Below the pieces are notes generated by a model that was not told the DNA's origin, did no database searches, and saw only the letters and a program-made list of their open reading frames with translations. Of a DNA stretch of 64,000 bases, positions 9,851 to 53,772 are shown piece after piece. The DNA comes from Bdellovibrio bacteriovorus (GTDB lineage: Bacteria > Bdellovibrionota > Bdellovibrionia > Bdellovibrionales > Bdellovibrionaceae): assembly GCF_025558485.1 (NCBI RefSeq), contig NZ_CP102930.1, positions 620,001-684,000 on the forward strand, in the 5' to 3' direction. Positions within the stretch are counted from its first letter, which is position 1. Each line of letters begins with the position of its first letter. A program made the position numbers and the translations under genes.

Positions 9851-10348
9851 CTATCGTTTATTACCCAAGAAAATTGAATCGTAAATTGCTTCCCAGTTGA
9901 TCATCTTAAACTTGGCCTTCACCTGCTGTCGCTCTTCACGACTTAGCGGCTTGTAGCCTCTTTCTTCGACCCAGCCGTAGCCCCAGCGGAAAGGTGTATG
10001 CAACTTATTGGTCCCACCCACACGCACACCGCGATAGTAGGCATCGGCCATGTATTTGTTTGATGAAAATTCAACGCACTTGCGCAGCTCTTGATCTGCG
10101 CGCTCACGGTCGTCACGAGTGCCACCCTGCCAGTAAGCCACATCGTGGTCCACACAGCAGTCCAGGAAGGCATTCATATCCCAGGCAAAGCCATCCGGAC
10201 TCATGCTGCATCCATCGCTGGTGAAGTCATTAAGCGTGTTTTTGGAATAGGCCACAGGCGCCACAGCACTGACTATAAAATAGACAGCCAATGCCAACCA
10301 GCGTCCCTTAACGGGCTTAAAAGAGATTAGTTTGAGTTCAATGCTCAT
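9851..10348 (-). CDS. Exported phospholipase A2-like protein
   Basis: After an N-terminal hydrophobic segment (about residues 16-34) the protein carries the phospholipase A2 signature CCxxHD at 64-69, with His 68, Asp 69 and Tyr 72, and a preceding DGCS-PDG stretch that may take the place of a calcium loop. The family cleaves the sn-2 ester of phospholipids. A GG-rich Shine-Dalgarno sequence sits just before the ATG. The DUF2183 phosphatase gene follows 11 bases later. The superfamily call rests on the catalytic block, since the rest is divergent; activity is inferred. Confidence 0.78.
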   Translation of the reverse strand: MSIELKLISFKPVKGRWLALAVYFIVSAVAPVAYSKNTLNDFTSDGCSMSPDGFAWDMNAFLDCCVDHDVAYWQGGTRDDRERADQELRKCVEFSSNKYMADAYYRGVRVGGTNKLHTPFRWGYGWVEERGYKPLSREERQQVKAKFKMINWEAIYDSIFLGNKR

Positions 10349-10387: not shown

Positions 10388-11230
10388 CTACTTTTCGCCC
10401 ACTACGTAAGCAATCCAACTTTCACAAGCCTCCCCGTGATCCACACGGGTGAAGTTGCCATCCCCAGAGCCATCCGGAGCCGTGCCTTCCCAGAAGACAT
10501 GCACCTTGCGGAAGCCCACTTCCTGCATCAGATCCTTGATTTCCGAGATAGTCCACAGACGCCAGTCATAGGTGAACACTTGTTCCAGCTTCTTACCACC
10601 CACTTTGAAATGGATATGGAAAAGAGCCTCATTGGTTACAGGATCAAAGTTTGTCTGATCCCAGTAATAAGTGAAGCCTTCATGCTTGATTGTGTCTTCA
10701 ATGGCATCGTAACACTGACTGCCACCAAAAATATCCACCAGGAACATGCCATCTTTATTCAACGTCTTAAACACGTTGGTGAAGTACTTCTTCATCAAAT
10801 CACGCTGTTTAAAGCAGAAGTATGAAAAATTCATCGCCGCCACGATATCCGCCTTTGGCAGATTCGGGTCCAGCACATTGCCTTCGATCAGGCGCATACG
10901 GCGCTGCTGTTCCGGCTTCAACTTGGTCAGGTAATGAGTTTTTCCGTAAGCCATTGGTTCCGGATCAAGATCAATTCCCACAGCTTCATGACGCGGGTTC
11001 AGCTTAATCCACTCTGTGGATAGTGCGAAGGTTCCGCAGAAATCCTCACGGAACAAACGGGGATTTTTCCCCTTCAGTTCACGGTAGGTGTTCCAGATAA
11101 AAATCACGTCATTTTCCGCAGATTGCACAGACTTCCGATACAGTTCGTACTTATCAAACTGCATCTTGGAGGTTTTCTTGGCAACCCGACGGCGAACCTT
11201 CTTACGATGGGAAAGATCTTTTTTGCTCAT
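10388..11230 (-). CDS. Class I SAM-dependent methyltransferase
   Basis: The core Rossmann fold is visible: LFREDFCGTFALSTEW takes the place of motif I, then EAVGIDLDPEPM (acidic residue after beta 2), EGNVLD and ADIVAAMNFSYFCF. A very basic N-terminal stretch of about 25 residues (KKVRRRVAKK) precedes it. Its ATG overlaps the stop of the E1-beta gene by one base (TAATG), so it is the third gene of that operon. The substrate is unknown. No RNA-binding or lipoyl-related domain is visible. Confidence 0.82.
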   Translation of the reverse strand: MSKKDLSHRKKVRRRVAKKTSKMQFDKYELYRKSVQSAENDVIFIWNTYRELKGKNPRLFREDFCGTFALSTEWIKLNPRHEAVGIDLDPEPMAYGKTHYLTKLKPEQQRRMRLIEGNVLDPNLPKADIVAAMNFSYFCFKQRDLMKKYFTNVFKTLNKDGMFLVDIFGGSQCYDAIEDTIKHEGFTYYWDQTNFDPVTNEALFHIHFKVGGKKLEQVFTYDWRLWTISEIKDLMQEVGFRKVHVFWEGTAPDGSGDGNFTRVDHGEACESWIAYVVGEK

Positions 11231-40788: not shown

Positions 40789-42675
40789 CTACAAACCAAA
40801 AACCGTCTTGGCGAACTTGGTTGAATCACCACTGGCGAAGACTTCGGCTTTGCCGCCCATACACTTCATCTCTCCGGATTCCTGCATCACAAAACAATTA
40901 TATCCGGGTCCAGAGGACACATCTTTCACGCCTTCAGTCACCACCGTGACAGGGCCATCGGCAAAGCTTCGGGCGATTTTGGTTCCATCCCCCATTTCGC
41001 CGGAGCTATTCTCACCCCAGCATTTCAGGGACCTCTGGTCTCCGACAATCGCACAAACAGAGTTATATCCACCAAATGAAACTTTTTTAGCACCTTCCAA
41101 CATTTTCTGCGGCGTCGAAGTTAAACCAAGACCAAAACCGGATCCCCAACAATACAGATCGCCGTTGGTTTTTATCGCACAGGCCTGGGACGATTGCTGG
41201 CGACCACCGGCAAAAATGCTCTGAACATCCGTCAAAATCGGGTCTGACGGAATACTTAAAAGATTCGTGGTGTTTCCCTGACCCAACTCTCCATTGGCAC
41301 CACGCCCCCAACAGCGAACCTCACCTGCCTGATTTAAATAGCAACTCGAACTGTCCATCAGCGCAACGTCCGTCACACCACCTGCAACCACCTCAAATGG
41401 TGTGGTTTGACTCGTGGTCGTGCCCGGCTGAATTTGCCCAAAGTCATTTTTACCCCAGCACTTCAATGCTCCTGAATTCAGAACTGCACAGCCGCCGTTT
41501 GAACTCATCGCGACCTTGACCACATCCTTTTCCAAGATCATCGCCTTGTTTATAATCGACAATCTTTGGTGCCACCAAAATCTGATCACGGATATTGATC
41601 TCTGTCATGGACAGCACACCGCCGGTGCCAAGCTGATTCTGCGCCAACACCAGACGCAAACGTCTTTCCGGTCCGGCCGTCGAATGGCTAAGAAGGCGGA
41701 CCGTCAGATACTCGACACTCGAGCCTATTCCAAAACTGACATACTTTGAAGACAGCTGAAAATCTGAAGCTGTCGCTTCGCCCATTGTTTCAATCGACAC
41801 TTTAAAAGGAATCGGGGCCGGCGCATTTAAAACCACCGGGATCAGAATATCCACGGCACTGCTGTCAACCTCGACGGTCTGTGTGCTGGATGCAAATGAT
41901 GCGGTTAAAATCGATGTGTAAGTAAGAACCTGTGATGTTCACTGGGGGAAATCTGCGCCACAAAATTCGCATTTCTGGTGTTGCTGGCCACCTGAATCGG
42001 CAAACGCGGACTGCCTGACACCGAAACTGGTTGATCATATTTAACCACGACTTCCAAACTGGTTCCGTCCAGATAGACATCCGTATCCGGCGATTTCAAC
42101 GATTTAACTTCCGGCACGGTGTTAATCAGTACAGGCGTTGTGCCCGCCAAAGATTTATCAGAGCCCGGATCTGGTAATTTTAAAGCTTCTTGAAGTTCCA
42201 GGGCAGTAAACTCATTTTCCTGATTTATCGGCAGGATCTCGCCACCATTCAGACTTATGGCCATGGCCTCGGTATAGTCCAACTTCGCGGCGGAATCACC
42301 GGCAACCACCGTATATTCAAAAATCAAAGTGGATGTTCCCGACCCCGATACATAGGCTGCCTTTCGAAGAATGGCCCCCGTGGAAAGTTCCAGCGTCGGA
42401 CTGCCATTCACCACCATGGCACGATCGAACTCAATCGAAATTGGAATCACTTGTGCTGTTGTAGCCCGAGGTAATGACAAACTTGATATCTCGGAAGTGC
42501 TGGCAATCCCCGTCAGGTCTGCCGTAACTTGAGTGACTTTTGGAGGAGTTAATCTGGAGGAAAAGCTGCCTGAAGCCGGACCGTACATCTCTAAATTAAG
42601 TGAACAGCCGATCATAAACCAAGCTGTGATCAGCAAAACAGAAATATTTCCCCAAACGTTCCACGAAATATACAT
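40789..42675 (-). pseudogene. RCC1-repeat/Calx-beta lipoprotein gene with two apparent frameshifts
   Basis: Three adjoining frames make up one surface protein. 42675-41905 has a lipoprotein signal (IGC) and bacterial Ig-like units (FDRAMVVNGSPTLELSTG). A middle frame ending near 41450 has a Calx-beta domain (ILIPVVLNAPAPIPFKVSIETMG cut at this point). 41589-40789 has RCC1 repeats (CWGKNDFGQIQPG, CWGRGANGELGQG, CWGENSSGEMGDG). The first and last are in the same frame and the middle one is shifted, so one shift near 41930 is undone near 41560. The intact product would be about 629 residues. Decay, sequencing errors or phase variation are all possible. Confidence 0.8.
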
Positions 42676-42789: not shown

Positions 42790-43350
42790 ATGAGCAAAAA
42801 GAAACTTTCCCCAAAACAATCCGAAAGCCTTCTCACAACTCTTCAGGAACGATTCGAGAACAATATGCCTCGCCACAAAGGCCTAAAGTGGTCTCAAGTC
42901 CAGTCCCGCCTGGAAGCCCACCCTGACAAACTGTGGTCCCTGCAAGAAATGGAAAGTTCCGGCGGTGAACCAGATGTGATCGGATATGATAAGAAAGCGG
43001 ACAAATTTCTTTTCTGTGATTGTTCAGAAGAAACCCCGAAAGGCCGCCGCAGCATTTGTTATGACCGCCAGGCCCTCAATTCCCGCAAAGAACACAAACC
43101 AAAAAACAGCGCCATGGATCTGGCCGCAGAAATGGGCGTGGAAATTCTGACTGAAGAACAGTACCGGGAACTACAAAGCCTGGGTGAATTCGATCTGAAA
43201 AGCTCCAGTTGGGTGCTGACCCCGCCTGCTATCCGCAAGCTGGGTGGTGCGATTTTTTGTGACCGCCGCTATGACCATGTCTTTACCTATCATAATGGCG
43301 CGGAATCCTACTATGCCGTTCGCGGCTTCCGCGGGTTGTTGAAGGTTTAG
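42790..43350 (+). CDS. DUF4256 family protein
   Basis: Family blocks run through the whole length: ERFENNMPRHKGLKW, LWSLQEMESSGGEPDVIGYD, DCSEETPKGRRSICYDR, TEEQYRELQSLG and HNGAESYYAVRGFRG. The function of the family is not known. No signal peptide is present, so it is cytoplasmic. I place the start at ATG 42790 by comparison with family length; an in-frame TTG at 42763 is possible and neither has a good Shine-Dalgarno sequence. It overlaps the convergent decarboxylase gene by four bases. Confidence 0.85.
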   Translation: MSKKKLSPKQSESLLTTLQERFENNMPRHKGLKWSQVQSRLEAHPDKLWSLQEMESSGGEPDVIGYDKKADKFLFCDCSEETPKGRRSICYDRQALNSRKEHKPKNSAMDLAAEMGVEILTEEQYRELQSLGEFDLKSSSWVLTPPAIRKLGGAIFCDRRYDHVFTYHNGAESYYAVRGFRGLLKV

Positions 43351-45119
43351 ATCTTTAATGAGTCCAAGCCTCTGACCCGTTCTTGCAGCGACTGAACAAA
43401 GAGATCCTGAAAATCCACATTCATCTCTTTGGTTTTAAAGAACGGGTTCATAATACAAATCCTTGCCAGCACCAGTTCATCGGCGTCGATCCTGCCCTGC
43501 CATGAGCTGACAACATTTTCAAAATATCGCGAATAACATTTCTTATAAATCCGGGTTTTTGAAATAAAAAAGTCACTGTGATTATCCGCTGCAAAGGTTT
43601 CATAAAGCCGCAAAGTTCGTTCATTCACCTTTTGCAAAGAATCCCCTGGCTGAGCCACGCAGAACCCCAGAAGATTGGCGTCCCCACTGGGAGCCACACG
43701 AATATTCGGCACATTTTCCCGCAGGACCTCTTCCATCTCTTTTCTTAGACGAATTGTGCGTGCAATCAGCCGCCCATAACCTTCCTGAGAAAACCCCACA
43801 CACTGCGCTGTCATCCAGGTCGCAACCGCTCCCGCCGCCGACCGAGAGCCTTCCAATGTAAAAGGCCCCTTGTCCTTGTTAACAGAAAAATTCACGTAAG
43901 GTGCCCCAAAGGACCTTTGATAATAGTCCTTTTCGTCAGCAGTGATAAAAGCCCCTGATGAATACGGCACATACCCCAGCTTGTGAGGATCAATGGTGAC
44001 CGATGTCGCCCGCCCCATCGCTTCAATGGCCTTAAGGCTTTGTTCCGACAGAACACCGCTGACTTCCTGATTTTCCCCTTTTAAAGAACAAAGAAATCCC
44101 CCGTAAGCTGCATCCACATGATGCCAGATGTGCCAGCCTTCAACATGGCGGTACATATCCAGCAGCTCTTGCACCTCATGAATCGGATCAATCATGCCCA
44201 GCTCTGTTGTTCCTAAAACCGACACCACCATCACAATGGGGCGATCCTCAAGCTGAGCACGCCGAATCTGCCTCTTTAAATCCTGAATATCCAGATGCCC
44301 GTGAGCATCCAGTTGCACCGGCCACAAAGCCTCGGCACCCAGGCCAAAAACGTGGGCCGACTTTGTCCAGGAATAATGTTTGTGTTCCGGAATTAACAAC
44401 ACAGGCCCCAGAAAATCACGCCCGATTTTCTGCGAAATTTCCTGTGCTGCTATAAAGGGATTGCCTTCAAATGGGTTCAATCTTTCTGCAGAAGCCTTTA
44501 CCCCGTGGGAAATTTCGTTATAACTTCGATAACCCATGGCCGCACTGGCAAACGCGGAACAACAACCCTGTTCCAACCCCGCAGCCATCCAATTAACACA
44601 TCGTGTACGTGCACGATAGACAGCCTCAAAATTTGCAATGGTTCCGCCCGAAGTGAAATGTCCAATACCTTTTCTAAAACCCATCATTTGCGCCAAAGCG
44701 GTGATGGCCTCTTCCTCGACGGTGACTCCGACCCAAGAGGACTCACCAGAGATATTATTTGGATTATGTAGCAAAGTCAGAATATGACCGAACAAGGCCG
44801 GCAGTGAGGTCTCTGAAAACATGTGACCAATGTAGCGTGGGGAAAATTTTGGAATTTCCTGTTCAAAACGTGATGCCAGTTCCTGCAAGACATCGTCCGT
44901 ATGCTGACGGCGTTTTATATAATCCGCGGATTCCATATCGGCTGAGGAAACCGCTCTGCCATCACCCGGCCGAAAACTGCGCCGCCATTCAAACCAGGAA
45001 TTTAAAAGGGCATTGATCTGCGCAGAAACCCACTGACTGTTTTCCGCCTGCGGCCCCAGAAAAAGCCCCTTTAAAGCGGCTTCTTCGGACAGACAGAGCG
45101 TTGCTAATTTGTCTTTCAT
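43347..45119 (-). CDS. Group II PLP-dependent decarboxylase
   Basis: The pyridoxal-phosphate Lys lies in DPHKLGYVPYSSGAF, and the cofactor-binding HHVDAAYGG is upstream of it. The scaffold is that of glutamate/aspartate/aromatic amino acid decarboxylases. The substrate cannot be read. AAGG precedes the ATG at 45119, which I prefer to a GTG nine bases upstream. It is the third gene behind a hemerythrin-PAS gene and an FmdE-like gene on the same strand (gaps 28 and 54 bases), so a role in low-oxygen metabolism is suggested by context. Confidence 0.88.
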   Translation of the reverse strand: MKDKLATLCLSEEAALKGLFLGPQAENSQWVSAQINALLNSWFEWRRSFRPGDGRAVSSADMESADYIKRRQHTDDVLQELASRFEQEIPKFSPRYIGHMFSETSLPALFGHILTLLHNPNNISGESSWVGVTVEEEAITALAQMMGFRKGIGHFTSGGTIANFEAVYRARTRCVNWMAAGLEQGCCSAFASAAMGYRSYNEISHGVKASAERLNPFEGNPFIAAQEISQKIGRDFLGPVLLIPEHKHYSWTKSAHVFGLGAEALWPVQLDAHGHLDIQDLKRQIRRAQLEDRPIVMVVSVLGTTELGMIDPIHEVQELLDMYRHVEGWHIWHHVDAAYGGFLCSLKGENQEVSGVLSEQSLKAIEAMGRATSVTIDPHKLGYVPYSSGAFITADEKDYYQRSFGAPYVNFSVNKDKGPFTLEGSRSAAGAVATWMTAQCVGFSQEGYGRLIARTIRLRKEMEEVLRENVPNIRVAPSGDANLLGFCVAQPGDSLQKVNERTLRLYETFAADNHSDFFISKTRIYKKCYSRYFENVVSSWQGRIDADELVLARICIMNPFFKTKEMNVDFQDLFVQSLQERVRGLDSLKI

Positions 45120-45173
45120 AAAAGCCACCTTAACAAACTCCCTGACATCTGGAATCCAACGCCCCGGTGGATT

Positions 45174-45764
45174 CTAGTGAGCCGACTGGGATACTTTAAC
45201 CATCAGCACCTTGTCAGCTTCCATCACGATTCGGCGAATTTTCATTCTCCAGACCTCTTGAAAAGAAAGATCCGACAAGTCCCCTTTCAGATCCACCTGG
45301 GAAGAGTCATAGAAAACTTCAATCGTCTTTCCTGTTCCCAAATGCTTAAATCTGTATGTACCCGGGGGCAGATCTGAAACTTCATAGGAAAGCAGTCCCC
45401 GGCGCACAAAATTTCCCTGAATGCCACCAAAACCACTTTTTTCCCATGCGCCAAATATCATGGAAAATACGTTCGATATCGGGCCCGTTGCCCCCCGATC
45501 CACGGCCGACCCCATTTCCACCGACACTTGCCCGCGGATCAGTACACCTGTTTCAGGAAAAAGTTCTCGCACCGCTCTCTGTGAAATTACAAAGGCTCCG
45601 ACCATCGAAGGACAGGCGTGCCCCGCAAATCTCACGACATCCAAAAGGGAGATCGGAAAGCTGTACTCCTCCTGATCCGCGCGAAGAAATTCCGCGAAGG
45701 GTTCACGCACCAAAATTTGCGGCAGCTTCATGTCCTCGGCTGTCATCATGACTCTGTTTTCCAT
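45174..45764 (-). CDS. FmdE-like protein
   Basis: VVRFAGHACPSMVGAFV carries the GHxCP motif that starts the FmdE (formylmethanofuran dehydrogenase subunit E-like) domain, and VSVEMGSAVDRGATGPISNV is its second conserved block. FmdE-type domains bind metal. The C-terminal 80 residues (LSYEVSDLPPGTYRFKHLG) are not familiar. There is no methanogenesis here, so the name marks the fold only. AAGGGAG precedes the ATG. It sits between the hemerythrin-PAS gene and the decarboxylase gene. Confidence 0.7.
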   Translation of the reverse strand: MENRVMMTAEDMKLPQILVREPFAEFLRADQEEYSFPISLLDVVRFAGHACPSMVGAFVISQRAVRELFPETGVLIRGQVSVEMGSAVDRGATGPISNVFSMIFGAWEKSGFGGIQGNFVRRGLLSYEVSDLPPGTYRFKHLGTGKTIEVFYDSSQVDLKGDLSDLSFQEVWRMKIRRIVMEADKVLMVKVSQSAH

Positions 45765-45792
45765 ACCGTCTCTCCCTTAAAAAAGGACAAGG

Positions 45793-46740
45793 CTATTGAT
45801 CCCAGCTCAACAGTCTTTTTTCTCCCTGAATTTTCTGAATGTCGGTGATGTCCTGGGACATTTCCAAAACGCCTTTGTAGTTTTTCTCTTTATCGCGAAC
45901 CGCAAAGTATCTGATGTGAATGGTGCGCCCCTTGAACTGAATCCAAAACTCGGCCTCGTCTTTCCGACCGGCTTTAAATTCCTCCAGAATGCGCAAAACG
46001 GTATCAACACTTTTCGGAGGATGACAGAAACGAACTTCGCGTCCTATCACCCCCGCGCTGCGCGGAAACACCCGCTCTTCACCCCGGTTGTAAAAAGCCA
46101 CCTTGTCATTTTCATCCACAAAGGTCACATCCACAGGAAGGAATTTCAATATCAGATTAATCTGTTCTAAGTTCAAAAACCCTTCGTCCATTTTCAGCTT
46201 TGAAAGATCCAGGGGACCGGTTGTTTTCTCAGGCTGCTCTTTTGTCACTCGACGGTCCTGATCGACCCAGCCAATCTCTTCATCCCCCGCAATCATTGCG
46301 TCCCAGTCTTCAGGCTGCAACAGTTGTAAGGCATTGGGGAACAGGCGGTTTTCCTCCACATGAATCATGTGGTGCATGTTCTCAATCAGAATGCGGATAT
46401 TTTCAGTCACGCTGGCGATGTCTTTACTTTCTATTTGCACGCGGATCGCACGAATGATGTCGCGAATACTGTCATGAAACGCCCACATTCCCTGACTGGG
46501 ACCATACCAGCCGCGTTTTTCCAGAAACGGAAACAGTTGGTTTTCCTTGCGGGCATAGCGTTTTTCAATTGCGCAAACGTGATTAAAGACATTGATGAAT
46601 TTCTGAAAGTCCTGAACAGGGGAGGCCATTTGCAGCTCCACCAGCAGCTTTTTGATAAACTCATTTTCTTCAAAGTAAACCCTTAAAGAATGGTTTTCAG
46701 GAAGTCCTGTAATGTAGTCAGGAAGTTTTGGGTAATGCAT
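45793..46740 (-). CDS. Hemerythrin-like and PAS domain protein (DUF438 type)
   Basis: Residues 1-170 form a helical HHE domain with the iron ligands spread over FNHVCAIEKRYARKENQLFPFL, WAFHDSIRD and ENMHHMIHVEENRLFP. Residues 190-305 are a PAS domain (FLPVDVTFVDENDKVAFYN, then VRFCHPPKS and YKGVLEMSQDITDIQ). This arrangement is known in sensors or repair factors that respond to oxygen or nitric oxide. There is no output domain. An FNR-like box lies 54 bases upstream of its start. It heads a three-gene run. Confidence 0.87.
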   Translation of the reverse strand: MHYPKLPDYITGLPENHSLRVYFEENEFIKKLLVELQMASPVQDFQKFINVFNHVCAIEKRYARKENQLFPFLEKRGWYGPSQGMWAFHDSIRDIIRAIRVQIESKDIASVTENIRILIENMHHMIHVEENRLFPNALQLLQPEDWDAMIAGDEEIGWVDQDRRVTKEQPEKTTGPLDLSKLKMDEGFLNLEQINLILKFLPVDVTFVDENDKVAFYNRGEERVFPRSAGVIGREVRFCHPPKSVDTVLRILEEFKAGRKDEAEFWIQFKGRTIHIRYFAVRDKEKNYKGVLEMSQDITDIQKIQGEKRLLSWDQ

Positions 46741-46793
46741 CGACCGAACCTCTATCTATGCTGACAGACTAACGCCAATGCTTGCGGGACTCC

Positions 46794-46807
46794 TTGATTC
46801 AGATCAT
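46794..46807. promoter_or_regulatory. FNR/Dnr-like binding box upstream of the hemerythrin-PAS gene
   Basis: TTGATTCAGATCAT matches the FNR/CRP-family consensus TTGAT-N4-ATCAA at nine of ten fixed positions. The box centre is about 60 bases before the start codon, which leaves room for a promoter downstream of it. The gene it precedes encodes an oxygen/NO-type sensor. No other such box was found by eye in the window. Confidence 0.6.
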
Positions 46808-46882: not shown

Positions 46883-47671
46883 CTATTCAAAGAGTGGCAA
46901 TGAAACAGCACCGCGAATCCAGATGAACATTTCTTGCGACACCGGGATAAAGTAAGTGGCCGCTTCTCCGCATGGGTGATTGGAAATAGATGTTTCCACA
47001 CCCACAAACTTCACCTGACCGTCTTTATCCAGCAAATATGCACTGCCACCAGAGTCCCCATGACATGCCCCCGGGCCCGGTTCAAAAATCTTGCCGATTT
47101 CCAATCCGCTGTATCCTGTGATGGCACGCAAAGGCAGGCTAACGGAAGCCTTTGTCCCTTTCACGCCCTGATGAACAGTCATTCCATAGCCGACGTGAGT
47201 CAGCTCACGACCGATCATGTCTTTATTCGCCAAAGTCATCGGAGCCGACTGAATCTGATACTCTACCAGATCCACATCCTGCTCCAACACCAACAAAGCC
47301 AGATCGCCACGAGGAATGTCCGGCTGAGGATGCACATGGGCCCGGGCCACTTTCAATTGCGGTGTCACCCACGGATGTGACTGCGGGTCTGTCGAATCAC
47401 CAATATAAATCCAGATTTTTTGAGGAAACTCTTCCACCGGTGTTTTAAAAGCCTTGGCTCCCAGTGAAATACAGTGGGCCGCCGTCAAAACCAGACGAGG
47501 TCCGATCAAAGTTCCACTGCAATACGTTTCACCTTGAAGTTGCGCGGAGGATTCTTTGAAGGTCAAAGCCACCGTTTGGCGATAAGAGCCATCCGTAATA
47601 GTACGACCACCCACCACACCCCAGGACAAAGCCGGGACCAGCAACAACAATGATAAAAGACCTGTTTTCAT
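46883..47671 (-). CDS. Secreted trypsin-like serine protease
   Basis: The signal peptide (about 1-16) is followed by VVGGRTI in place of the usual activation site. The catalytic His is in LTAAHC, Asp in RGDLALLVL and Ser in GACHGDSGGSAYL. Cys residues pair as in S1 proteases. The length (262) is that of a single S1 domain with no extra domain. It diverges from a second trypsin-like gene with a gap of about 115 bases, so the two probably share control. Prey protein digestion is the natural inference. Confidence 0.9.
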   Translation of the reverse strand: MKTGLLSLLLLVPALSWGVVGGRTITDGSYRQTVALTFKESSAQLQGETYCSGTLIGPRLVLTAAHCISLGAKAFKTPVEEFPQKIWIYIGDSTDPQSHPWVTPQLKVARAHVHPQPDIPRGDLALLVLEQDVDLVEYQIQSAPMTLANKDMIGRELTHVGYGMTVHQGVKGTKASVSLPLRAITGYSGLEIGKIFEPGPGACHGDSGGSAYLLDKDGQVKFVGVETSISNHPCGEAATYFIPVSQEMFIWIRGAVSLPLFE

Positions 47672-48724: not shown

Positions 48725-49567
48725 ATGTTACCTAGCGCTACGGATCTGGAATACTTTCTGGAAGTTTCTCGCACGTTAAACATCTCTCGTGCCGCTGAAC
48801 GCATCGGGATTTCCCAACCCACCCTGACCCAGTCTATTCATAAGCTTGAGTCCGCAGTCGGCGCACAGCTATTGATCCGCACCCGCACCGGAGTTCGCCT
48901 GACCAAGCCGGGCTTGCGCATCTCAGGCCAGATTATGACTTTACTGGAATCCTGGGCCAGTCTGCAAAAGGAAGCTCAGCAGGATGAACACGAGCTTCAG
49001 GGGAAGTTCCGTCTGGGAGTGCACCCTTCCGTGGCCCGCTATACCTTGCCGAAGTTTTTCAAAGAACTTTCCCGTCGGGCTCCGCGCATTGAAATTGAAC
49101 TGGTGCATGACCTTTCCCGCCACATCACGGAATCAATCATCAATTTCAAAGTCGATCTGGGATTGGTTATCAATCCTGCCAATCATCCCGATCTGGTTCT
49201 GAGAAAAATCTGCGACGACCATGTGACGGTCTTTCAAAGTCGTCACCGCACCGGAAAAATTCTTTTCGGCGATCCGGATCTGGCACAGACCCAATGGATT
49301 TTAAAACGTCTTAAAAGGCCCTCTTTGGATTTCACGCACTTTGTACCAACCCCCAATCTGGAGGTGGTTCAATGTATGGTGGCCTCGGGCGCTGGCTACG
49401 GAGTTTTGCCGACACGCGTGGCTCAAAGTGAAGGTGGGCACCAGCTGACCGTGGTGGACGCGAAGCTTCCGGCATTTAAGGACGAGCTTTTTGTCGCTTA
49501 CCGCAAGGAAGTCATGACCTCCCGAGCCGCCAAAACCCTGATTGAGATCGCCAAAGACTGTCTGTAA
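48725..49567 (+). CDS. LysR family transcriptional regulator
   Basis: The N-terminal winged helix-turn-helix (residues 3-60; FLEVSRTLNISRAAERIGISQPTLTQSIHKLE, divided at its turn) is standard for LysR. The rest is a substrate-binding domain with YTLPKFFKELSRRAP and the second lobe CMVASGAGYGVLPTRVA. It lies directly before the isonitrile operon in the same direction. In Pseudomonas aeruginosa a LysR protein, PtxR, controls the pvc isonitrile operon, which supports a matching role here. The effector is unknown. Confidence 0.9.
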   Translation: MLPSATDLEYFLEVSRTLNISRAAERIGISQPTLTQSIHKLESAVGAQLLIRTRTGVRLTKPGLRISGQIMTLLESWASLQKEAQQDEHELQGKFRLGVHPSVARYTLPKFFKELSRRAPRIEIELVHDLSRHITESIINFKVDLGLVINPANHPDLVLRKICDDHVTVFQSRHRTGKILFGDPDLAQTQWILKRLKRPSLDFTHFVPTPNLEVVQCMVASGAGYGVLPTRVAQSEGGHQLTVVDAKLPAFKDELFVAYRKEVMTSRAAKTLIEIAKDCL

Positions 49568-49571
49568 GCAT

Positions 49572-49602
49572 ATATAGGTTTTTACCTATATCATAAATAG
49601 GT
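49572..49602. promoter_or_regulatory. Operator region of the isonitrile operon
   Basis: ATATAGGT and ACCTATAT form a perfect eight-base inverted repeat around TTTT at 49572-49591. A further half site (ATAGGT) starts at 49597, 23 bases after the corresponding bases of the first half, or about two helical turns. LysR proteins often bind such a strong site and a nearby weaker one. The first gene of the operon starts 64 bases later, behind CTAGGAGG. Confidence 0.6.
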
Positions 49603-49665
49603 CCTTATTATTTTACCCAATATGTGAAATCTCCTAGAAACAAGTCTGTTCTCTAGGAGGTTTGT

Positions 49666-50616
49666 ATGTCCCTGTCCGAACAAATACTGAATCTGGTTTT
49701 TGAAATCCGCAATGTCATAGCTCTTCCCGATGAAACGAACTTGCAAAGTGAGATTCTCAAAATCCGGGCGCAGCAGTTAGAAAAGATCGACAGCTTTATT
49801 CGCGACGGAAAGCCCGTGCATATGATTCTGCCCGCGTTTCCGGCCAAATCCCCAAATCCACAAAAGACAGTCACTAACCGCCCGGACTATGGCGAAGTCC
49901 TGGCTCTTAAAAAACTGCAAAGTCTCTGCGAGCACATCCAAAACATTTACCCTGCTGGCGCTCATATCACGATTTGCTCAGACGGACGCGTCTTTAGCGA
50001 TGTGGTTGAAGTCAGTGATGGCGCTGTCGATGTGTACGGGCGCGAAATCAAAGAAATTCTGCGGGATCATGATCTGACCCACCTTTCCACCTTCAGTCTG
50101 GATGATGTTTTTTCTTCCCACAATTACGATTTAATGAGGCAGCGCCTGACCACCGAATTTGCCGAGCCCGTGGCAACGATTCGCCAGCGCACTTTAAAAG
50201 ATGCCGAAGCTCGTTCCATGTTCAATGGAATCCACCGCTTTATGTTCGAAGATCAAACAGCTCTGTATCCTGAAAAGTCCCGAACCTCTCTGCGCGAACA
50301 TGCCAAAGATTTGGCGTATGAGGTGATCCGCCGATCCAATGCCTGGAGTCGTCTGGTGGAAAAAAAGTTCGCCAACTCCCTGCGCCTGTCTATTCATCCG
50401 CAGCCTTTACATTCCATAAAAATTGGAATTCGTCTGCTGCCGTCGTCAGACCTTTGGCGTACACCCTGGCATTCAGTCACAGTTTTTGACGGACACGATT
50501 ACTATCTGGCACCGCGATCTCAAGTCGAAGCCGCAGGAGGTGTTCTGACCTATGCTGCCGAAAAATATCCTTACTACTTCCTGCCAACTTCCCAAGCGGC
50601 AATGGAGGCCCTATGA
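49666..50616 (+). CDS. pvcA: Isonitrile (isocyanide) synthase, PvcA/IsnA/DIT1 family
   Basis: Family enzymes convert the amino group of Tyr or Trp to an isonitrile using ribulose-5-phosphate as carbon source. The diagnostic blocks are LPAFPAKSPNPQKT (residues 55-68), PDYGEVLALKKLQSLC and ICSDGRVFSDVV (about 103-113, with the charged DGR). 316 residues is normal for the single-domain enzyme. AGGAGG precedes the ATG. It is the first of four genes joined by ATGA overlaps. Choice of Tyr or Trp cannot be read. Confidence 0.93.
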   Translation: MSLSEQILNLVFEIRNVIALPDETNLQSEILKIRAQQLEKIDSFIRDGKPVHMILPAFPAKSPNPQKTVTNRPDYGEVLALKKLQSLCEHIQNIYPAGAHITICSDGRVFSDVVEVSDGAVDVYGREIKEILRDHDLTHLSTFSLDDVFSSHNYDLMRQRLTTEFAEPVATIRQRTLKDAEARSMFNGIHRFMFEDQTALYPEKSRTSLREHAKDLAYEVIRRSNAWSRLVEKKFANSLRLSIHPQPLHSIKIGIRLLPSSDLWRTPWHSVTVFDGHDYYLAPRSQVEAAGGVLTYAAEKYPYYFLPTSQAAMEAL

Positions 50617-51407
50617 AACAGGTGTCCCTGAATCCCTTCGGTATGATGTTAGTTTCCGATGACCACACAACCGGGTTGGCGCAGTTGTCCATTGCCACCG
50701 TCAAAGAACTTTTGCACCAGCACAAGCTGGTGGTCATCCGGGGAATTTCAGCCCCGGCCCGTGATCAATTTCTGGCATTCTGTGCAGGTATTTCAGAAAT
50801 GCGCCCCCTGGAATGGAGCTTTGGCCCTGTCATGGAAATGAAAGAAGACCAGAACCCGCAGAACTATCTTTTTTCCCGGGAAAAAGTACCGTTCCACTGG
50901 GATGGAGCTTTTCATCAGGTTCCCGACTATCTGGTTTTTTCCTGCGTGCAGGCCCCCAACGAAGCCGCTGGGGGAGAAACACTTTTTACCAATACAGAAC
51001 CTCTTTATCAGGAAGCTTCCGAAGAGATTCGTAACCACTGGGCCTTACTGGAGTTGCAATATCAAACCGACAAAAAAGCGCACTATGGCGGATCAATCAA
51101 AGCCCCGTTGGTGCAAAAGCATCCCATCACACAAGCCCCTATCTTGCGTTTTGCAGAACCCGTGGAAACCGAACTCAACCCCGTAAGCCTGAAAATCAGC
51201 GGTGGAGATCTTTCACTGCATCCTCATTTTCTCAGCGACATGGTCCAGAAAATATATGCAGCCGAATACTGTTATAAACACCAATGGCAAGCCGGGGATC
51301 TTCTTTTCGCCGACAACCATTCACTGATTCACGGACGAACCGCCTTTGAAAAGAATTGCCCCCGCCATTTGCGTCGCATTCAGCTTATTAAGGAGACCTC
51401 CCTATGA
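50613..51407 (+). CDS. pvcB: Fe(II)/2-oxoglutarate-dependent oxygenase, PvcB/IsnB (TauD) family
   Basis: The partner of the isonitrile synthase. PvcB-type enzymes oxidise the isonitrile amino acid, usually losing CO2 to give a vinyl isonitrile. The iron ligands are His 95 and Asp 97 in FHWDGAF and His about 240 in IHGRTAF, with the 2-oxoglutarate Arg in the closing RHLRRIQ block. The length (264) is typical. The ATG overlaps the previous stop (ATGA), so translation is coupled. Product geometry cannot be predicted. Confidence 0.92.
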   Translation: MKQVSLNPFGMMLVSDDHTTGLAQLSIATVKELLHQHKLVVIRGISAPARDQFLAFCAGISEMRPLEWSFGPVMEMKEDQNPQNYLFSREKVPFHWDGAFHQVPDYLVFSCVQAPNEAAGGETLFTNTEPLYQEASEEIRNHWALLELQYQTDKKAHYGGSIKAPLVQKHPITQAPILRFAEPVETELNPVSLKISGGDLSLHPHFLSDMVQKIYAAEYCYKHQWQAGDLLFADNHSLIHGRTAFEKNCPRHLRRIQLIKETSL

Positions 51408-52606
51408 CCGATCTTTATCACCGTAAAATGTCGTCTTCACCGGAAAGTTTTGCTCATTTTCTGAAATCCCAGGGGCCGGTCTTCTGGGCTGAAGCGGAAC
51501 AAATCTGGGTCCTCACAGATCATGAACTGGCCCAGGGGGTTCTGAAAAGCCCTGACTTCAGTGCCGATCGATCTTCGTTCTTTATGGCCAAGATATCAGG
51601 CTGCCCGTTTGCCAAAGTTTCCAACTTCTTCGGGGTAGTGAAAAAGATGATGGTCACCAGTGATCCCCCCCACCATACAGCGCGGCGCCGTTTGGGAAAT
51701 TCCGGGATCACCGATCATATTCTGGATCGCTTTCTGCCTCAGGTCGATGCGGTTGTTAATGAGCTGATCAATCAGCTACCTCGCACATTCAGTTTCGACT
51801 TTGTGGAAAAGGTGGCCCTGCCACTACCGAATATCGTTCTGGCGGATTTATTTTCTATTCCAACAGACAAACGCAAAGATTTCTATTTGTGGTCCAATCA
51901 TATGACCCAATTTTTTGGCGGAGCCTCTGACAATCTGGAACTGGATGCTTTCAATGCGGACTCCGGGGCTGCCCACTTGCGCGATTACTTCAAACAACTG
52001 ATGCAAGAGCGCCGGGAACAACCACAGGACGACTTCATCAGCCACTTGCTGCGCTCGCAAGGAAGTCTGGATGATGACGAGGTCGTGTCTCAGGCCGCAA
52101 TAATGTTGGTGGCTGGCACTGTCACAACGACCGATCAGATCTGCAACAATCTTCATACATTCTTGCAAAATAATATCTGGCGGGATCTGGTACAAAATCC
52201 GGGCCTCTTGGAAAAAGCCATCGAGGAGGCAACTCGCCTGGACCCGTCCGTGAACTTTATTTTCCGTATTGCAAAGAAGGATATGACCTTAAACGGGGCT
52301 TCTATCAAAGCTGGCCAGTTGGTGTTCGTCGCAAATCACGCAGTCAACCGGGACGACAATGTCTTTACCAAGCCTCATGAATTTGTTCTGAACCGCGATC
52401 GCAATCCCCATTTGTCTTACGGTGCTGGCATTCATTACTGTCTGGGGGCCCGACTGGGACGCATTCAGATGCAACGTCTGTTTACTCGCCTGCTACAAGA
52501 TTTCCCGGATCTTTCTTTGGACACCTCACAGGTCTCTTTGCGCAAACATCAAAGCCTGGCGTTTTCCGGTTTTGAAAACCTGCATCTGACCACGGAGTCT
52601 TTATGA
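51404..52606 (+). CDS. Cytochrome P450
   Basis: A soluble bacterial class I P450. The heme Cys is at about 346 in SYGAGIHYCLGARLGR, the I-helix oxygen motif is MLVAGTVTTTDQ, and the ExxR of helix K is in EEATRLDPS. The tyrosine three before the Cys region is slightly unusual. No ferredoxin or reductase gene is in the window, so electrons must come from elsewhere. It overlaps both neighbours by ATGA. In this setting it probably hydroxylates, epoxidises or couples the aromatic isonitrile. Confidence 0.93.
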   Translation: MTDLYHRKMSSSPESFAHFLKSQGPVFWAEAEQIWVLTDHELAQGVLKSPDFSADRSSFFMAKISGCPFAKVSNFFGVVKKMMVTSDPPHHTARRRLGNSGITDHILDRFLPQVDAVVNELINQLPRTFSFDFVEKVALPLPNIVLADLFSIPTDKRKDFYLWSNHMTQFFGGASDNLELDAFNADSGAAHLRDYFKQLMQERREQPQDDFISHLLRSQGSLDDDEVVSQAAIMLVAGTVTTTDQICNNLHTFLQNNIWRDLVQNPGLLEKAIEEATRLDPSVNFIFRIAKKDMTLNGASIKAGQLVFVANHAVNRDDNVFTKPHEFVLNRDRNPHLSYGAGIHYCLGARLGRIQMQRLFTRLLQDFPDLSLDTSQVSLRKHQSLAFSGFENLHLTTESL

Positions 52607-53772
52607 AAATAGTTTTCTGCCTTCTTTCTGATCAGGGGCATATCAATCCTTATATCGGGCCAGCACAAGCCCTGCTGGACCGCGGTCATGATGTGACGGT
52701 GATCTCTGCCGGAAATCTGGAAGGACAAATGAAAAAAGCAGGCATCCCCTTCTGTGGGAAGCTGGTTCAAGCAGATCAAGGCAGTCCCCGCGGACGTTCC
52801 TTGGTGGAGATGATTGAAAACCGCGCCCTGCATCGCTCTATCATTCAAACCTTCTTTTTAAAGGGCATCAAAGAACAGGTTCCTCTTGTACAAAAATGGC
52901 TTAAAGTGCACCAACCTGATGTTGTGGTCGCAGATCCGATGAACTATGCGGCAATCATTGCGGCTCACAATCTAAAACTTCCCTGGGTTTCAATGTCCAG
53001 CTCCTTGACCTCGGTGATTCCAGACGACTTGCAAAGTGATGTTCTGGATATAGTGCGCAGCCTTGACCACGACCGCCAGCAACTGTTTCAGTCATTAGGC
53101 GCTGAAAGTCTGCGCTTTCGCGCCGTGGACTGCCTGTCCCCGTGGTTGAATATCACCTTTGCCACAAAGTCCTTTATCAAATCGCCGCCGGCAGGAGTGC
53201 AGCTTGTCGGTCCGTCGGTCCCCCTTCGTGATCGGGGTGATTCTGCCGGAACCTACAGCCCGGTCGATGGACTCACAACCATTTACGTGTCTTTTGGAAG
53301 TCAGGTATTTTATTATCCTGAACTTTTCAAAAAAATTACCGCCGCTGTCCAAGACCTGCCAGTTCATTTGGAAATATCCATTGGTGATTTGATTGACGAG
53401 CCGGGCTGGAAAAACACATCCCAGTGTCGCTTTTATCGTTATGCCCCTCAGTTGGATATTCTGCCCCAGGCTTCTTTATTTATCACACATGGCGGAGCCA
53501 ACTCGATCATGGAAGGTCTGCGCGCTGGAACTCCCCTGCTGGTCTTCCCAATCTGCAACGATCAAGCCCATCAAGCTTATTTTGTCGAGAAAAGCGGAAC
53601 AGGCCAGTCTATCAACCTGCGAACAGCCATGATCCCAGAAATTCGTAAAGCGATTATCGACATGCTCGAAAATCATGAACTCCACCAACAAGTGAAGGCA
53701 GTGGCTCAGGACTATCAACAAAACGGTTCTATAAAAGCAGCGCAGTTGATTGAAGAAACAATGGCAATATAA
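52603..53772 (+). CDS. GT1 family glycosyltransferase (UGT/MGT type)
   Basis: The N-terminal domain starts with FCLLSDQGHINPYIGPAQAL and the acceptor region follows. The C-terminal nucleotide-sugar domain has YVSFGSQ and the conserved THGGANSIMEGLRAGTPLLVFP, then NDQAHQAYFVEKSGTG. The fold is that of macrolide and sterol glucosyltransferases, so a UDP- or dTDP-sugar is added to a small molecule. In rhabduscin synthesis a glycosyltransferase also follows isnA and isnB. A strong hairpin ends the operon. Confidence 0.92.
   Translation: MKIVFCLLSDQGHINPYIGPAQALLDRGHDVTVISAGNLEGQMKKAGIPFCGKLVQADQGSPRGRSLVEMIENRALHRSIIQTFFLKGIKEQVPLVQKWLKVHQPDVVVADPMNYAAIIAAHNLKLPWVSMSSSLTSVIPDDLQSDVLDIVRSLDHDRQQLFQSLGAESLRFRAVDCLSPWLNITFATKSFIKSPPAGVQLVGPSVPLRDRGDSAGTYSPVDGLTTIYVSFGSQVFYYPELFKKITAAVQDLPVHLEISIGDLIDEPGWKNTSQCRFYRYAPQLDILPQASLFITHGGANSIMEGLRAGTPLLVFPICNDQAHQAYFVEKSGTGQSINLRTAMIPEIRKAIIDMLENHELHQQVKAVAQDYQQNGSIKAAQLIEETMAI

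What the first reader, a model, noticed from the sequence alone, without database searches (positions are those of the whole stretch)
45174..46807. FNR-box-controlled hemerythrin-PAS, FmdE-like and PLP-decarboxylase genes
TTGATTCAGATCAT lies before a hemerythrin-PAS protein that would sense oxygen or NO. The next two genes on the strand encode an FmdE-like metal protein and an amino acid decarboxylase. I know of no described unit with these three. It could be a response to low oxygen or nitrosative stress, as in prey or biofilms.
Basis: partly seen in the sequence, partly recalled or inferred. Interest (0 to 1): 0.58.

Follow-up and report, generated by a model that had tools for sequence, protein, structure and literature searches.

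The report
Probable nitric-oxide-response operon in Bdellovibrio
A predatory bacterium carries three adjacent genes behind a low-oxygen-type control site; relatives of these genes sit beside nitric-oxide-respiration genes in other predators, so the trio is probably a small operon for coping with nitric oxide or lack of oxygen.

Summary
The box and genes are real. TTGATTCAGATCAT (46794-46807) matches 9 of 10 FNR positions, 60 bp before a hemerythrin-PAS gene; an FmdE-like gene and a PLP decarboxylase follow on the same strand. The box alone is no more than chance in the window (4 found, 4.09 expected). Comparison makes it credible: 16 of 44 closer relatives of the hemerythrin-PAS gene carry such a box upstream (0.9 expected). 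In Bdellovibrionota all three families recur beside nitric oxide genes (norCBQD, nnrS, norE, nirK) or cbb3 genes; in one Bdellovibrio the PLP and hemerythrin-PAS genes bracket norCBQD on one strand. No norB, nnrS or nirK was found in this genome. The nitrosative/low-oxygen reading is supported. Weaker: no Fe-S FNR was found (two CRP-type regulators, one with an FNR-type recognition helix); the hemerythrin domain has Arg where many relatives have a likely iron-ligand His; the FmdE label is below Pfam's cut-off; the contiguous trio was seen only here. New variant of a known kind: an NO/low-oxygen accessory operon. Transcription and biochemistry are untested.

The parts
46794..46807 (-). FNR/DNR-type palindrome, ATGATCTGAATCAA on the coding strand, centre 60 bp before the ATG
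46766..46771 (-). possible -10 hexamer TAGTCT, 29 nt after the box centre, where a class II activated promoter would need it; only 3 of 6 bases match TATAAT
   Evidence: weak, positional argument
45793..46740 (-). hemerythrin-PAS protein, 315 aa; HHE four-helix bundle plus PAS_10, no output domain found
45174..45764 (-). FmdE-like protein, 196 aa; GHxCP motif with H49 and C51 invariant in 8 aligned sequences; remote and below the FmdE cut-off
43347..45128 (-). group II PLP decarboxylase, tyrosine-decarboxylase-like; probable start is the ATG at 45119; HVDAAYGG and DPHK motifs visible in the translation

Best explanation
The three genes form one operon switched on under low oxygen or nitric oxide by a CRP/FNR-family activator that binds ATGATCTGAATCAA (operon, activator and signal inferred). 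The operon is an accessory set of the nitric oxide/denitrification regulon of Bdellovibrionota: in relatives its members sit in or next to norCBQD, norE, nnrS and cbb3 oxidase gene groups. In this genome it is kept although no NO reductase, NnrS or copper nitrite reductase was found, so its job is probably tolerance of outside NO or of hypoxia rather than NO respiration. Most likely steps, all inferred from families: the hemerythrin-PAS protein handles or repairs iron centres under NO, as proposed for Ddes_1165; the FmdE-like protein binds a metal through its invariant His-x-Cys motif and serves the same respiratory or repair task; the decarboxylase turns an amino acid, probably aromatic, into an amine, for a reason unknown. 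Shown here: gene order, box, conservation of the box, neighbourhoods, co-occurrence. Not shown: co-transcription, induction, biochemistry.
For: Same-strand order with gaps of 28 and 45 bp. Boxes with at most 1 mismatch, 20-150 bp upstream, at 16 of 44 hemerythrin-PAS genes of 50% identity or more (0.9 expected) and 1 of 15 below 50% (0.12 expected). Boxes also upstream of norC (2 of 4), NnrS (2 of 10), CRP-type genes (3 of 3) and PLP (1 of 10) in Bdellovibrionota loci. In G003 the run DGC-PLP-U217-norC-norB-norQ-norD-hemerythrin-PAS is on one strand; NorB of G014 matches solved NO reductase subunit B at 5e-111, NirK of G008 is over the TIGR02376 cut-off. Of 23 same-genus relatives, FmdE is in 5, all among the 6 with hemerythrin-PAS (chance 1.8e-4), and those 6 are all among the 10 with strong norB (chance 0.0021). 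Nor, NnrS, NorE or NirK genes lie near FmdE in 12 of 23 regions, against 0 of 17 other stretches. Two more of the 4 intergenic box sites of this genome precede a lone NorE-like COX3 gene and a universal stress protein gene. NO induction of a hemerythrin-PAS protein is published (PMC5701242, passages).
Against: No NorB, NnrS or NirK match in this genome. The DNR-like regulator that sits with nor in relatives has no close counterpart here: the two CRP-type proteins are about 20-24% identical to it over long alignments. Within Bdellovibrionota only 3 of the hemerythrin-PAS loci scanned (about 14) carry the box at 1 mismatch or less: this one, L006 and L015. FmdE genes had a box in 0 of 33 matches scanned, redundant matches included. 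Outside Bdellovibrionota the hemerythrin-PAS gene has almost none of the query genes beside it. Neighbour and co-occurrence counts come from related genomes and are not independent.
Confidence: 0.6

Rival explanations
1. The operon is a leftover of a nor/denitrification island: the genome lost nor, nnrS and nirK, and the three genes, brought together by rearrangement, are drifting with little present function.
For: No norB, nnrS or nirK match; members bracket nor in relatives; the contiguous trio was seen only here; trees place the own FmdE in a clade of mixed families and the own hemerythrin-PAS with a Leptospiraceae MAG row rather than with G003/G014, so the parts may have different histories.
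Against: All three frames are intact, the decarboxylase keeps its motifs and 77% identity to G003/G014, start signals and the box are in place, and separate box sites precede a NorE-like and a Usp gene.
Confidence: 0.2
2. Only the hemerythrin-PAS gene is under the FNR-type box; the FmdE-like and decarboxylase genes have their own promoters and lie there by chance.
For: In most loci outside Bdellovibrionota the hemerythrin-PAS gene stands without the query genes although the box is conserved. The contiguous trio is unique to this genome in the sets examined.
Against: Pairs recur: hemerythrin-PAS near FmdE in G241 and G223, hemerythrin-PAS with PLP in G003 and L033, FmdE-NnrS-PLP in G046. Gaps are short, and the consensus scan lists no promoter-like site on the minus strand between the genes.
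Confidence: 0.15
3. The box is a chance match, and the genes are driven by another promoter or by read-through from the protease gene upstream (46883-47671).
For: Window count equals expectation (4 against 4.09); 36 of 40 genome sites are inside called ORFs; no terminator-like site was listed on the minus strand between the protease gene and the box.
Against: Position 60 bp before the start, and conservation in orthologues far above expectation.
Confidence: 0.05

Closest known systems
Ddes_1165 of Desulfovibrio desulfuricans 27774, a YtfE-like hemerythrin-PAS protein (PMC5701242, passages read)
   Same: Hemerythrin plus PAS architecture; NO-induced gene; proposed to repair nitrosative damage.
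   Different: From an anaerobic sulfate reducer. Its named ligand H234 corresponds by spacing to position 61 here, which is Arg. No direct sequence comparison was made.
PF0695 of Pyrococcus furiosus (3cax) and SMU_1151c C-terminal domain (2qkp), solved but uncharacterised
   Same: Best sequence matches (5e-45 and 2e-25) and best structure matches (Z 17.3 over 297 residues, rmsd 19.1, so the domain arrangement differs; Z 16.1 over 133 residues, rmsd 2.7).
   Different: 3cax is longer (355-369 residues); no function known from the titles seen.
Accessory genes of NO regulons reconstructed by Rodionov et al. 2005 (PMC1274295, passages read)
   Same: FNR-like palindromes before NO-metabolism genes; hemerythrin-like genes named among HcpR regulon members.
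   Different: Bdellovibrio does not occur in its main text; the trio is not described in the passages I saw.
Putative NO reductase cluster bd2597-bd2602 of B. bacteriovorus HD100 (PMC3539863, passages read)
   Same: A Bdellovibrio with a small NO reductase cluster, absent from strain Tiberius.
   Different: The genes of this trio are not named in the passages I saw.

Membership tests
FNR regulon promoter | TTGAT-N4-ATCAA palindrome | tested here: met
   9 of 10 positions; conserved in orthologues
FNR regulon promoter | Box centred at -41.5 with a -10 hexamer | tested here: inconclusive
   TAGTCT at the right spacing, 3 of 6 matches; transcription start unknown
FNR regulon promoter | Fe-S FNR protein in the genome | tested here: not met
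   Two HTH_Crp_2 matches; the one with an ExxSR helix has a single Cys, the other has Pro in place of the Glu. The ExxSR and cysteine rules are recalled
RIC/YtfE iron-repair family | Hemerythrin HHE domain | tested here: met
   44.6 bits, cut-off 25.3; helical bundle in the model
RIC/YtfE iron-repair family | N-terminal ScdA domain (recalled feature) | tested here: not met
   No such Pfam match up to E 1; HHE match starts at residue 25
RIC/YtfE iron-repair family | Full di-iron ligand set | tested here: inconclusive
   H17, E66 and E129 in 30 of 30 rows and H89 in 27 of 30, but position 61 is His in 16 and Arg in 13, this protein included
HHE-PAS proteins of the PF0695/Ddes_1165 type | HHE followed by PAS_10 | tested here: met
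FmdE (PF02663) | Score over the curated cut-off | tested here: not met
   12.9 bits against 22.9; of 7 relatives scanned only L130 shows FmdE, at E 0.14; profile comparison with one true FmdE gave 24% probability
FmdE (PF02663) | GHxCP start and later conserved Cys | tested here: inconclusive
   GHxC kept; C51 is the only invariant Cys in 8 rows; the later cysteines seen in the true FmdE of L218 are absent
Group II PLP decarboxylase | Pyridoxal_deC domain with DPHK lysine | tested here: met
Tyrosine decarboxylase (TIGR03811) | Score over the equivalog cut-off | tested here: not met
   253.4 bits against 905.3
nor-operon accessory genes | Adjacent to norCBQD | tested here: not met
   Met in G003 and G014 for hemerythrin-PAS and in G003 and G008 for PLP, not in this genome, where norB was not found

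The most novel reading that the evidence does not exclude
An undescribed NO-tolerance module (hemerythrin-PAS, a new FmdE-like metal-protein family and an amino acid decarboxylase, in relatives also with the DGC protein) that normally accompanies nor/NnrS/cbb3 respiration in Bdellovibrionota and that here works on its own, without an NO reductase, to let a predator survive NO or lack of oxygen.
Probability: 0.25. Interest if true: 0.65.

Novelty: new variant of a known kind. Interest (0 to 1): 0.42.

Why it matters
It ties three poorly understood families to nitric oxide and low-oxygen metabolism in predatory bacteria and gives two of them (the FmdE-like family and the tyrosine-decarboxylase-like enzyme) a testable context. 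It also singles out a genome where these helpers persist although no NO reductase was found, so their own contribution to NO tolerance could be measured there without that background.

Tried and rejected
Single-sequence structure prediction of the FmdE-like protein failed (mean pLDDT 33.6), so no fold search was made with it. A PDB profile search with its 8-row alignment gave one match at E 1.2. A phylum search with PF02663 found one FmdE in 290 genomes, too few for a good profile comparison. In the second-look structure list no YtfE entry appeared among the 50 rows shown; that proves nothing.

Literature searches for COG2461 plus denitrification, FmdE plus nitric oxide plus hemerythrin, DUF438 plus hemerythrin, and NnrS plus formylmethanofuran dehydrogenase subunit E returned no papers. 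Bdellovibrio plus hemerythrin returned 5, of which I saw only the listing. The other searches gave the papers cited or only listings. The statement that I found no description of the trio rests on these ten searches.

Considered and set aside: that the decarboxylase belongs with the isonitrile-type gene cluster at 48725-53772; it is on the other strand, and its relatives sit with nor genes. One perfect box at L195:9399 lies between convergent genes and was not counted as a promoter. The 'NirK' hits of 29-36% beside FmdE in L131, L132, L223 and L224 are probably cbb3 cytochrome c subunits and were not counted as nirK. In the FmdE region count L234 (no FmdE found at the threshold) was dropped, leaving 23. 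Three of 20 requested control stretches did not exist, leaving 17. The split 12 of 23 and the count 7 of 13 hemerythrin-PAS loci used were made by hand; flank lengths differ between loci. One search was a script that failed and was repeated.

Full report
Setting. The window is G000:C1:620001-684000 of a 3.34 Mb single-contig genome of estimated completeness 91%.

Observation. The box TTGATTCAGATCAT is at 46794-46807. With one mismatch allowed, the window has 4 such palindromes against 4.09 expected, so rarity says nothing. It lies 60 bp before the ATG of the hemerythrin-PAS gene, with a purine-rich ribosome-binding stretch and a weak -10 hexamer at the spacing of a class II activated promoter. 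The three genes run on the minus strand with gaps of 28 and 45 bp; a convergent DUF4256 gene follows the unit and a protease gene lies 142 bp upstream.

Families. The 315-aa protein has Hemerythrin and PAS_10 domains over cut-off, and its model (mean pLDDT 84.6) matches 3cax and 2qkp best. In 30 aligned sequences H17, E66 and E129 are invariant and H89 is in 27, but position 61 is His in 16 and Arg in 13, including this protein. For Ddes_1165 the paper names H234, E239 and H262 as equivalents of YtfE iron ligands; the H-E spacing matches positions 61 and 66 here, though I made no direct alignment. A classical di-iron site is therefore not assured. The 196-aa protein is only remotely FmdE-like: 12.9 bits against a cut-off of 22.9, one of 7 relatives with a similar weak hit, invariant H49 and C51 but no later conserved Cys. 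The decarboxylase is a group II PLP enzyme nearest to tyrosine decarboxylases, far below that equivalog's cut-off.

Conservation of the box. Scanning 20-150 bp upstream of projected starts, 16 of 44 hemerythrin-PAS genes with 50% identity or more have a box with at most one mismatch (0.9 expected from first-order Markov shuffles), and 1 of 15 more distant ones (0.12 expected). Many are Arcobacter and relatives with near-identical spacing, so they are not independent, and the own gene is one of the 16. Among the Bdellovibrionota scanned only this locus, L006 (G008) and L015 (G016) have it. Boxes also precede norC in G003 and G008, NnrS in G008 and G009, CRP-type genes in 3 of 3, and the PLP gene of G008.

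Neighbourhoods. In G003 the contig reads, on one strand, DGC, PLP, an unknown 217-aa gene, norC, norB, norQ, norD, hemerythrin-PAS. In G014 norCBQD is followed by hemerythrin-PAS, and another contig carries DGC, PLP and the 217-aa gene. In G008 PLP precedes norCBQD, with a divergent CRP-type gene and nirK. G001 has nor, hemerythrin-PAS, NorE and COX15; G009 has NorE, hemerythrin-PAS and DGC; L033 has DGC, hemerythrin-PAS, COX15 and PLP. G046 has nrdGD, FmdE, NnrS, PLP and nirK. G241 has hemerythrin-PAS near FmdE and NnrS; G223 has hemerythrin-PAS, NorE and FmdE; G054, G317 and G194 have cbb3 genes, NnrS and FmdE. Gene names were checked by Pfam, NCBIfam or PDB matches for one representative of several types (NorC, NorB, NorQ, NorD, DGC, NorE as COX3, COX15, NirK, CRP); NnrS calls agree with the PF05940 places; NrdG, NrdD, Rrf2 and CcoN were named by eye. 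Of 23 FmdE regions, 12 hold nor, NnrS, NorE or NirK genes; of 17 other stretches from a subset of the same genomes none does (one has NrdG and a CRP-like match).

Co-occurrence. In 23 same-genus relatives hemerythrin-PAS is in 6, FmdE in 5 (all among those 6), strong norB in 10 (all 6 included), strong PLP in 10 (5 of the 6 included). Relatives share history, so the probabilities are optimistic.

This genome. NorB, NnrS and NirK were not found. Forty WTGATNNNNATCAW sites exist, 36 inside called ORFs; the 4 intergenic ones precede this operon, a lone NorE-like COX3 gene, a universal stress protein gene and a 61-aa ORF. Two CRP-type regulators were found. L002, about 10 kb beyond the window, has a recognition helix with the FNR-type ExxSR pattern (recalled rule) but one cysteine only; the other, L001, has Pro in place of the Glu. 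L002 is the candidate activator, untested.

History. Trees put the own hemerythrin-PAS with the Leptospiraceae MAG row L013 (support 100/99) and the own FmdE in a clade with G008, G046, G188, G213 and G241 (91/88), apart from G009, G014 and G016, while PLP is closest to G003 and G014 at 77%. The trio was thus probably assembled from parts.

Verdict. An accessory operon of NO/low-oxygen metabolism under an FNR-type box is the best reading; a vestige of a lost nor island is the main rival. The literature gives NO induction of a hemerythrin-PAS protein (PMC5701242, passages), hemerythrin-like genes in HcpR regulons (PMC1274295, passages) and a nor cluster in HD100 (PMC3539863, passages); I found no description of the trio in the ten searches made.

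Noticed in passing
window 48725-53772 (+): LysR gene, DIT1_PvcA isocyanide-synthase-type gene, TauD-type oxygenase, cytochrome P450 and UDP-glucosyltransferase in a row: looks like a glycosylated isonitrile pathway in a Bdellovibrio.
   Followed up: partly
window 40789-42675 (-): An RCC1-repeat protein and two upstream frames look like one gene broken by frameshifts, perhaps sequencing errors, in line with 91% completeness.
   Followed up: no
L194:9617-10204 (-), box at 10231: Lone NorE-like COX3 gene behind TTGATCCGGATCAT in a genome where norB was not found.
   Followed up: partly
L196:9455-10381 (-), box at 10434: Universal stress protein gene behind ATGATTCAGATCAT, 59 bp upstream.
   Followed up: no
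L122:3261-3899 (-), L221:6647-7279 (-), L222:2040-2705 (-): A small winged-helix regulator (DeoR/MarR-like for L122; the others judged by eye) lies near FmdE in three genomes.
   Followed up: no
L119:5597-6250 (-), L128:6275-6928 (+): Unknown 217-aa family next to PLP and, in G003, between PLP and norC; no Pfam match up to 0.01; recurs in L122 and L129.
   Followed up: no
L013: The closest hemerythrin-PAS relative (67%) is on a contig titled Leptospiraceae MAG, with a perfect box: transfer or misbinning.
   Followed up: partly
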